The position numbers and the translations under genes were made by a program. From Prevotellaceae bacterium (GTDB lineage: Bacteria; Bacteroidota; Bacteroidia; Bacteroidales; Bacteroidaceae), in contig JAJPYQ010000041.1 of assembly GCA_021204865.1 (NCBI GenBank), forward strand, positions 1-64,000: a DNA stretch of 64,000 bases. Reading direction: 5' to 3'. Below, one piece after another: positions 35,091 through 37,034 of the stretch (position 1 is the stretch's first letter; every line of letters starts with the position of its first letter). The notes beneath the pieces are model-generated. The model did not search any database. It was not told the DNA's origin and saw only the letters and a program-made list of their open reading frames with translations.

Positions 35091-37034
35091 TCATTCTGAA
35101 ACGGCGCGGACGGAGAAGCCGCCGTCGCGGCGGCTGTCGTTCCGGCGGAAGTAGCCACTGCTGAAGTTGAGGTTGTACGCGTTCTGCGTACTGCTCTCGT
35201 CGGGTGCGGCACTCCAATAGTAGCCGCTCCCTCCAGCGTAGCAAAGCGACGTCCCGTTACGCCAGCCAGCGGCGGGAAGGAAGATGCTGTTCCCGTTCGG
35301 TCCCGTAACCTTGTAGCCCGCGTGTCCGCCCACAGTTGTCCACGTGCGCTGGCACTTGTTTATCAGTTCGTCTATCTCGTTCGCTGTGGGCAGCCTCCAC
35401 GTGCCGCCCCAGTTGGAGCACGCCGCGTCGTAGCTTGGGTCGCCCGCTATGCTGCCCATGCTCACATTATATGTCCTGCTGTTGTCCTCATCGTACGATG
35501 ACTTCGTGCTTGTCTCTCCCCAGGCATAGTAGTTGCCATACTCCGAAGGAGAAGAAGCCCCAACGTTGCAGGTTGCCCACTTCACGCTCAGCCCCAGGTC
35601 GACATACTCGTGCCCGTTGATGTAGCCGCTGGTTGGCTTGCTCGTCTGTGTTGCGGTGGTCGTTGTCTGCGTTGTCTGCGTTGTCTGCGTGGCTTGTGTG
35701 GTCGTCTGGGTCTGCTGCTCGCTCTGCGTCTGCTGCTGTGGGGCAGGGGCTGCGACCTCTTCCTCCCGCTTCTTCTCAGGCTCTTGCGTCTCCTCCTCAT
35801 CGGGCGCTATCACTTGGCTCGTGAGGCGGTCGGGGATTGCGACGGTGTCCACATACACCGTGTCCACCCTTGCAAGCTCCCCATCTGAGGGCTTGGGCTT
35901 GCGCAGCAGGACGGCAGCCGCCACTATGCCTATCGCCACAAGGCAAGCCACGGCTATCGTGACAGGGGAGAGGAGAGACTTCCCCTTGGGCTTGGGCGTA
36001 GGCTGCACTGGCTCCGCGGGCTTCGTCTCCACAGTCTCCGCCTCGGGCTCTGACACCACGCCCTCAGGAATATCGCTCACCACCTCCGCCACTATAGGCT
36101 CGTCACCGCCAAGCATGGTCTCCTCGCCCGTGGGGGCGTGACGGTTGAGCACCTCAAGCACCTCGGCCGCCGACTGCGGGCGGTCCACCATCATTGGAGC
36201 CATACACTTCTTAACCAGCTCGATAAGCCACTGGGAAACACCTTTGCCTTGCAGCTCGGCAGCGGGGAAGCCCTGGTTGAGGATGTGCGAGGCGTCTGGT
36301 GGACGCTGCCCGCTGAGCATCTTGAACATAGTGCCGCCCAAGGCATAGATGTCCATCGTCACGGGGAAGCCCTGCCCCTCCTGGTAGTCGCTCTGCTCGA
36401 GTGGCGCATAGCCCTTAGTGCCTTTTCCCACCATTGTGCTGCTCTCCGGCTCGCCGTTCTCGTCGTATTGCTTGGAGAGGCCGAAGTCAATCAGCACAGC
36501 GTGCCCGTCACGCAGCATGATGTTCAGCGGCTTGAGGTCGAGATGCAGCATGCCGTTCTTGTGCATGAACCCGAGGGCGGAGCATATCTCGCGGGCGTAC
36601 TTCACGCACTCCTCCTCCTGGAGCCTTCCCCTTTGGGCGATATGGTCGTCGAGGCTGCCGCCGCTGATGTAGTCCATGGCGTAGTAGACAGTGCCGTTTG
36701 TCTCGAACGCCTCAAGCACCTTCACTATGTTCGGGTGCCTCAGCCGTGATAGGTTGCGAGCCTCGCGGACGAACTTCTTGCGGTAGTCCACGAACAAGCC
36801 GTTCTCGCTTCCGCTGGTCACCGAGGTGCCAGTGCGGCCGTTGATGTCGCGCATGAAGAACTCCTTCACGGCGACGTTGAGATCCAGCTCCCCCAACGCT
36901 CCTGGCACACGCATCGTTGCGAGGTAGGTGATGCCGAACGAGCCCTGCCCCAGTGCCCTCACTATCTTGTACTGGTATGATTTTCCCTGAAGCACCGCCC
37001 CCTGAGGCAGCCCCTTGATAATGTTCTCGCTCAT
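35091..37034 (-). CDS. DGR target: transmembrane Ser/Thr protein kinase with C-terminal FISUMP/C-type-lectin-like variable domain
   Basis: GQGSFGITYLA, VAVKEFF, HLDLKPLNIML, DFGLSKQY; TM SPVTIAVACLVAIGIVAAAVLL; Thr/Gln linker; YVDLGLSVKWATCNVGA...FLPAAGWRNGTS...FSVRAVSE. Confidence 0.93.
   Translation of the reverse strand: MSENIIKGLPQGAVLQGKSYQYKIVRALGQGSFGITYLATMRVPGALGELDLNVAVKEFFMRDINGRTGTSVTSGSENGLFVDYRKKFVREARNLSRLRHPNIVKVLEAFETNGTVYYAMDYISGGSLDDHIAQRGRLQEEECVKYAREICSALGFMHKNGMLHLDLKPLNIMLRDGHAVLIDFGLSKQYDENGEPESSTMVGKGTKGYAPLEQSDYQEGQGFPVTMDIYALGGTMFKMLSGQRPPDASHILNQGFPAAELQGKGVSQWLIELVKKCMAPMMVDRPQSAAEVLEVLNRHAPTGEETMLGGDEPIVAEVVSDIPEGVVSEPEAETVETKPAEPVQPTPKPKGKSLLSPVTIAVACLVAIGIVAAAVLLRKPKPSDGELARVDTVYVDTVAIPDRLTSQVIAPDEEETQEPEKKREEEVAAPAPQQQTQSEQQTQTTTQATQTTQTTQTTTTATQTSKPTSGYINGHEYVDLGLSVKWATCNVGASSPSEYGNYYAWGETSTKSSYDEDNSRTYNVSMGSIAGDPSYDAACSNWGGTWRLPTANEIDELINKCQRTWTTVGGHAGYKVTGPNGNSIFLPAAGWRNGTSLCYAGGSGYYWSAAPDESSTQNAYNLNFSSGYFRRNDSRRDGGFSVRAVSE
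35094..35278 (-). repeat. DGR variable region (VR), 185 bp
   Basis: Near-identical to TR 33746..33930, with all differences at TR adenines; lies at the 3' end of the target gene. Confidence 0.95.

What the first reader, a model, noticed from the sequence alone, without database searches (positions are those of the whole stretch)
35091..37034. DGR target is a transmembrane Ser/Thr kinase with a hypervariable putative ectodomain
An N-terminal kinase domain with Lys, HxD and DFG residues retained is followed by one TM helix, a Thr/Gln-rich linker and a FISUMP/C-type-lectin-like domain ending in the VR. If the topology is kinase-in and lectin-out, the DGR would diversify the ligand specificity of a signalling receptor. 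That is a very different role from phage adhesin diversification.
Basis: partly seen in the sequence, partly recalled or inferred. Interest (0 to 1): 0.9.

Follow-up and report, generated by a model that had tools for sequence, protein, structure and literature searches.

The report
Hypermutating periplasmic sensor on bacterial kinase
A gut-type Bacteroidales bacterium carries a mutation machine that rewrites only the outward-facing, probably periplasmic, tip of a membrane-spanning signalling kinase while the kinase itself stays conserved, so the cell can probably evolve what the receptor senses without changing the signal it sends.

Summary
Window 35091-37034 (-) encodes an intact Hanks-type Ser/Thr kinase, one TM helix, a low-complexity linker and a FISUMP/Lcl_C-like domain ending in a DGR variable repeat. 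VR and TR differ at 20 of 185 bases, all TR adenines, none at third codon positions. RT (IGxxxSQ, YVDD), Avd and an MSL-like accessory gene follow.

Homing signature: against the secreted target C9a, synonymous divergence falls from 0.65 to 0.00 at the VR edge; against the second kinase C57, from 0.73 to 0.09. Non-target paralogues show no fall. An orthologue keeps 97% identity in the kinase and 66% in the VR.

Topology: in 39 dereplicated single-TM kinases, positive charge lies on the kinase side (34 to 1) and Bacteroidota O-glycosylation motifs, which require export, are enriched only after the TM. Two sibling targets carry signal peptides. The domain is therefore probably periplasmic rather than on the cell surface.

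Kinase targets recur in three RT-tree positions; two loci also carry FHA genes, one with PP2C and caspase genes. Cytosolic DGR-kinases were known in cyanobacteria, so this is a new variant of a known kind. Ligand, kinase activity and output are untested.

The parts
35091..37034 (-). DGR target: kinase-TM-linker-FISUMP/Lcl_C-like protein, 647 aa
36159..36971 (-). Hanks-type kinase domain (residues 22-292); catalytic motifs intact; HLD instead of HRD
   Evidence: Pfam E=3.6e-39; conserved in alignment A2
35907..35963 (-). single transmembrane helix (about residues 358-376)
   Evidence: hydropathy 2.86; helix in the AlphaFold2 model
35631..35906 (-). disordered juxtamembrane and Thr/Gln-rich linker (residues 377-468)
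   Evidence: pLDDT below 50 for 379-466
35841..35864 (-). two D-T-V O-glycosylation motifs (391-393, 396-398), a class enriched only after the TM in this kinase family
   Evidence: motif requires export (PMC8550257)
35094..35627 (-). FISUMP/Lcl_C (DUF1566)-like domain, residues 470-647
   Evidence: AlphaFold2 pLDDT 98.1, pTM 0.92
35094..35278 (-). variable repeat (VR)
   Evidence: 20/20 mismatches at TR adenines; synonymous divergence to other targets falls to 0.00-0.09 here
35022..35048 (-). 10-bp GC-rich hairpin about 45 nt after the VR; also follows 3 of the 5 remote VRs; candidate homing hairpin or terminator
34495..34983 (-). 162-aa accessory gene, MSL (MutS-like) type; conserved beside relatives' DGRs
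   Evidence: the L276 accessory gene in the same position has a sub-cut-off MutS_I match; MSL named in PMC10053308
34105..34488 (-). Avd accessory protein
   Evidence: PHROG 3206 E=5e-22; NF033474 E=4e-14, below cut-off
33746..33930 (-). template repeat (TR), in frame inside the annotated RT ORF
32531..34027 (-). DGR reverse transcriptase ORF (RT proper from about 33700 down); IGNLSSQ and YVDD motifs

Best explanation
This is a chromosomal DGR whose cassette target is an inner-membrane Hanks-type sensor kinase: kinase in the cytoplasm, FISUMP/Lcl_C-like sensor domain in the periplasm. Adenine-mutated cDNA made from the TR overwrites the last 185 bp of the gene and randomises about 19 AAY-coded positions in the C-terminal strands. 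The catalytic half is left unchanged. The same TR also feeds a second transmembrane kinase and secreted FISUMP proteins elsewhere in the genome. Shown by sequence: the DGR, its targeting of the kinase, past homing, conserved kinase motifs. Strongly inferred: periplasmic placement. Inferred: the variable surface binds a ligand, binding alters kinase activity, and the signal passes to FHA/PP2C partners. Least certain: the ligand is a phage, rival or host molecule and the output is defensive.
For: A-specific TR/VR mismatches, 20/20, none at third positions. Six TR-derived VRs in the genome and one DGR RT. Drop in synonymous divergence at the VR edge against C9a (0.65 to 0.00) and C57 (0.73 to 0.09), absent in non-target paralogues. 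Orthologue P0123: kinase domain 97.3% identical, VR 65.6%, and 19 of 21 VR differences at codons with a TR adenine at position 1 or 2. Kinase dN/dS about 0.29. Topology: 39 dereplicated single-TM kinases have K+R of 4.0 before and 1.5 after the TM (34 against 1), and D[ST][AILMTV] motifs 39 observed against 11.9 +/- 3.1 after the TM but 9 against 9.3 before it. Signal-peptide siblings C9a and C60. Kinase targets at three positions in the RT tree. FHA beside L276 kinases; FHA, PP2C and caspase in L277; FHA and PP2C present in this genome.
Against: No ligand, phosphorylation, expression or live mutagenesis was tested. TM-less kinase-FISUMP fusions exist (C71 in this genome, not a DGR target; L277 10686-12248, which is a DGR target), so such a domain can also sit in the cytoplasm. 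Fold searches gave no strong PDB match. No FHA or PP2C gene lies beside this kinase in the window. This kinase's own TM flanks are nearly symmetric in charge (3 against 4). The protein's own database cluster has one member.
Confidence: 0.72

Rival explanations
1. The kinase is only a membrane anchor. The diversified periplasmic domain works like its secreted siblings (adhesion, trapping, decoy), and phosphorylation does not depend on ligand binding.
For: The same TR feeds signal-peptide FISUMP proteins with no kinase. Most related DGRs target secreted, lipoprotein or other non-kinase proteins.
Against: Catalytic motifs are conserved and the kinase evolves under purifying selection. Kinase targets recur in three RT-tree positions. 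Two such loci also carry FHA genes, one with PP2C. A periplasmic domain on the inner membrane is badly placed for adhesion.
Confidence: 0.15
2. Both domains are cytoplasmic. The VR domain chooses the substrate or an internal ligand, as proposed for cyanobacterial DGR kinases.
For: Most cyanobacterial DGR variable proteins are predicted cytosolic (PMC7517822). TM-less kinase-FISUMP fusions exist, one of them a DGR target.
Against: Strong TM helix between the domains; family-wide positive-inside bias and post-TM export-dependent glycosylation motifs; siblings with signal peptides.
Confidence: 0.06
3. The locus is a relic: the DGR once acted on the kinase but is now inactive or neutral.
For: Draft MAG with no expression data; some remote VRs are decayed (C60: 15 non-A changes; C53: frameshift).
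Against: Cassette VR and C9a VR have zero non-A changes. RT, Avd and accessory ORFs are intact. VR dS to C9a is 0.00.
Confidence: 0.07

Closest known systems
Cyanobacterial DGR variable proteins with Ser/Thr kinase plus C-terminal CLec domain (Vallota-Eastman 2020, PMC7517822)
   Same: DGR writes variation into the C-terminal domain of a Hanks-type kinase; remote paralogous targets in the genome
   Different: There mostly predicted cytosolic. Here a TM separates kinase and VR domain, the domain is FISUMP/Lcl_C-like, and the host is Bacteroidales.
DGR-diversified putative antigen sensors of multicellular bacteria (PMC10907252) and VMAP-ternary conflict systems (PMC7159879)
   Same: Diversified sensor domains attached to signalling or conflict modules, some with kinase domains; cytoplasmic or periplasmic placement discussed
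   Different: Those centre on STAND NTPase and MoxR-vWA systems; none was seen beside this DGR. A caspase gene occurs in one relative's locus (L277).
PknB/StkP PASTA kinases and PpkA (closest solved kinase domains)
   Same: N-terminal cytoplasmic Hanks kinase, one TM, C-terminal sensor domain outside the cytoplasm
   Different: Sensor is FISUMP-like, not PASTA or vWA, and is hypermutated; PknB_PASTA model 151 bits against cut-off 450
Bacterial DUF1566 (FISUMP/Lcl_C) DGR targets
   Same: Same domain class, reported as the commonest named Pfam domain of DGR targets (PMC6642488)
   Different: Usually secreted or lipoprotein adhesin-like proteins, not kinases

Membership tests
Diversity-generating retroelement | TR/VR pair with adenine-specific mismatches | tested here: met
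   20/20 mismatches at A; remote C9a 17/17
Diversity-generating retroelement | DGR-type RT with (I/V/L)GxxxSQ and YxDD motifs | tested here: met
   IGNLSSQ and YVDD read in the ORF; PHROG 1423 E=6e-91
Diversity-generating retroelement | Avd or other accessory gene | tested here: met
   Avd; MSL-like gene
Diversity-generating retroelement | IMH at the VR 3' end that directs one-way homing | tested here: inconclusive
   Invariant VR/TR 3' end and a downstream hairpin at 4 of 6 VRs; function untested
Diversity-generating retroelement | Mutagenic homing in living cells | not testable with these tools
   Only the historical signature
Hanks-type Ser/Thr kinase | Gly-loop, VAxK Lys, C-helix Glu, catalytic Asp, Asn and DFG | tested here: met
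Hanks-type Ser/Thr kinase | Phosphotransfer activity | not testable with these tools
   needs a biochemical assay
PASTA kinase (PknB/StkP/PrkC) | PASTA repeats after the TM | tested here: not met
   No PASTA hit; NF033483 151 bits against cut-off 450
FISUMP / Lcl_C (DUF1566) | Match above curated cut-off | tested here: not met
   31.5 of 34.9 bits (Pfam); 22.8 of 41.65 bits (NCBIfam). E-values are significant and many close relatives carry the Pfam label, so it is called FISUMP-like rather than a formal member.
C-type lectin fold | Structural match to solved C-type-lectin-like domains | tested here: inconclusive
   Best informative PDB hit is the Lcl CTD 8q4e, probability 0.41 and E=0.22; the Lcl CTD is C-type-lectin-like (PMC11162425)
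Transmembrane receptor kinase | Sensor domain outside the cytoplasm | tested here: met
   By inference only: charge bias and glycosylation motifs over 39 kinases, signal-peptide siblings; no topology assay
Transmembrane receptor kinase | Ligand-regulated kinase activity | not testable with these tools
   needs experiment
Cyanobacterial-type DGR kinase | Kinase fused to a C-terminal VR domain, mostly cytosolic | tested here: inconclusive
   Fusion met; localisation differs (TM present here)

The most novel reading that the evidence does not exclude
Several Bacteroidales lineages independently use DGRs to evolve the periplasmic specificity of transmembrane Ser/Thr receptor kinases tied to PP2C, FHA and caspase modules. 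This would be an anticipatory, genome-written receptor repertoire that senses phage, rival or host molecules and triggers a conserved intracellular response.
Probability: 0.35. Interest if true: 0.93.

Novelty: new variant of a known kind. Interest (0 to 1): 0.78.

Why it matters
It separates a conserved signalling output from a sensor that the cell can randomise, an arrangement well known from animal immune receptors. If confirmed, DGRs in gut bacteria evolve receptors as well as adhesins, and the repeated occurrence of kinase targets gives natural replicates for testing what such receptors sense. It also offers a ready scaffold for studying how receptor specificity evolves.

Tried and rejected
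Phage or prophage DGR: rejected; surroundings are housekeeping genes (ribosomal proteins, infC, thrS; read). Chance repeat: rejected (20/20 A). Pseudokinase: rejected on motifs and dN/dS. PASTA kinase: rejected. The idea that this DGR's closest relatives also target kinases: not supported; G319, G098, G172, G024, G017 and G082 target non-kinase proteins, while G738/G746 and L140 do target kinases. PDB fold search did not establish the fold. Model coordinates were not exposed, so solvent accessibility was not computed. The full-length model is moderate (pLDDT 69.6). No sequence relative of the domain in PDB.

Full report
WHAT IS THERE. On the minus strand, in order, are: a 647-aa kinase gene (37034-35091), a 162-aa accessory gene (34983-34495), avd (34488-34105), the TR (33930-33746) and the RT (34027-32531). 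VR (35094-35278) and TR align over 185 bp without gaps; the 20 mismatches are 14 A>G, 4 A>T and 2 A>C and nothing else. They fall 11/9/0 by codon position and change 16 residues; 19 TR codons are AAY. The RT carries IGNLSSQ and YVDD.

ONE TEMPLATE, SIX TARGETS. The TR finds six VRs in the genome. They are: the cassette kinase (20 A changes, 0 others); C9:78243, a signal-peptide FISUMP protein (17/0); C57, a second intact kinase-TM-FISUMP protein (20/4); C53, a TM-FISUMP piece with a frameshift in the VR (21/6); C9:68827, truncated (25/5); and C60, a signal-peptide FISUMP protein (17/15). Only one DGR RT is present.

PAST HOMING. Between the cassette kinase and C9a (C9:78243) the constant part of the FISUMP domain has dS 0.65, the VR dS 0.00 and dN 0.17; against C57 the values are 0.73, 0.09 and 0.19. 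Non-target FISUMP paralogues (C71, C9:60471) show no drop in the VR. Both VRs were therefore overwritten from one template after the genes diverged. The kinase domains of the two paralogues have dN 0.18 and dS 0.63, that is, purifying selection. In orthologue P0123 the kinase domain is 97.3% identical and the VR 65.6%; 19 of 21 VR differences fall at codons with a TR adenine at position 1 or 2.

WHERE VARIATION FALLS. The FISUMP-like domain models at pLDDT 98.1. Across 84 relatives the 19 AAY positions have mean entropy 3.34 bits, against 1.31 for non-A VR positions and 1.31 for the rest of the domain; along the strands they alternate with conserved residues. This fits a tolerant exposed face. 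Exposure itself could not be computed, since coordinates were not released. Fold search was weak: the best informative PDB entry is the Lcl C-terminal domain 8q4e (probability 0.41), which its authors describe as C-type-lectin-like (PMC11162425); viral models annotated as FISUMP match at E=4e-4.

TOPOLOGY. A TM helix lies between kinase and sensor. In 39 kinases with a single TM, dereplicated at 70% identity, K+R average 4.0 in the 15 residues before the TM and 1.5 after it (34 against 1). The motif D[ST][AILMTV] occurs 39 times in the 80 residues after the TM (shuffled 11.9 +/- 3.1, 0 of 500 shuffles as high), 9 times before it (9.3 +/- 3.0), and 7 times in TM-less kinases (4.4 +/- 2.2). In Bacteroidota this O-glycosylation motif is modified only on exported proteins (PMC8550257). 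The window protein has two such motifs just after its TM. Two sibling targets carry the same domain behind a signal peptide. With a cytoplasmic ATP-dependent kinase and one TM, the sensor should be periplasmic. This is strong inference; no assay was possible.

RECURRENCE. DGR RTs related to ours occur in 20 of 400 family genomes and 34 of 395 order genomes. Most targets are secreted, lipoprotein-like or otherwise non-kinase. Kinase targets were also found in G738 (L276, two TM kinases), G746 (L277, one TM and one TM-less kinase) and a Muribaculaceae MAG (L140, kinase-TM-FGE-sulfatase; 23 of 24 mismatches at A, RT frameshifted). On the RT tree these are three separate positions, and starred branches force three changes of the label; one gain with losses is not excluded by that count. 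Locus L276 also encodes an FHA protein; L277 encodes FHA, PP2C and caspase-domain proteins. The window's genome has seven FHA and three PP2C matches, none beside this kinase.

PRECEDENT. Cyanobacterial DGR variable proteins are most often Ser/Thr kinases, mostly predicted cytosolic (PMC7517822). DGR targets with kinase domains appear among putative conflict systems (PMC10907252; see also PMC7159879). The global survey of PMC8144416 reports membrane-anchored targets in general and does not mention kinases in its main text. I found no paper on transmembrane DGR kinases in Bacteroidales, but the library holds open-access papers only.

VERDICT. DGR targeting of the kinase is close to certain. Periplasmic placement is about 0.9 likely. 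A ligand-sensing function is likely (about 0.7). A defence role is open (about 0.35).

Noticed in passing
window 33746-34027 (-): The TR is in frame within the N-terminal part of the RT ORF and reads as a FISUMP fragment; the same holds in several relatives (G319, G098, G389, G172, G017).
   Followed up: partly
L277 (G746:C16) 3247-13198: DGR locus with two VR-bearing kinases, a third kinase, PP2C phosphatase, caspase-domain protein and FHA protein in one stretch.
   Followed up: partly
L276 (G738:C3) 2167-9972: DGR locus with two VR-bearing transmembrane kinases and an FHA gene between them.
   Followed up: partly
L140 (CALUMJ010000033.1) 7980-11932: DGR with a kinase-TM-FGE-sulfatase target; RT split by a frameshift.
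   Followed up: partly
L067 (C21), L068 (C77), L066 (C53), L061 (C60): Two kinase genes stop at contig ends with the same sequence, and C53 and C60 begin with the same TM sequence: probably a collapsed repeat. C53 (VR-FISUMP) may be the tail of a third DGR-kinase; C77 has PP2C and FHA genes nearby.
   Followed up: partly
L063 6538-6666: Beside the remote secreted target C9a lies a 43-aa remnant of the accessory gene (86% identity), which suggests a past duplication of the cassette.
   Followed up: no
window 24531-28937 (-): 1468-aa TPR-CHAT protein (CHAT E=2.8e-55) about 3.6 kb from the RT end of the cassette; CHAT proteases occur in DGR-linked conflict systems, but a link here is unproven.
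   Followed up: no
window 37419-38092 (-): Possible HicA-type toxin-antitoxin pair upstream of the kinase; the HicA match is below cut-off.
   Followed up: no
window 31367-32050 (+): SocA/Panacea-domain antitoxin-like ORF beside an apparent tRNA gene at the far side of the DGR.
   Followed up: no
window 36537-36545 (-): The catalytic loop reads HLD, not HRD, in this kinase and its near relatives, whereas the G738 kinases have HRD; kinases were thus drawn from different subfamilies.
   Followed up: no
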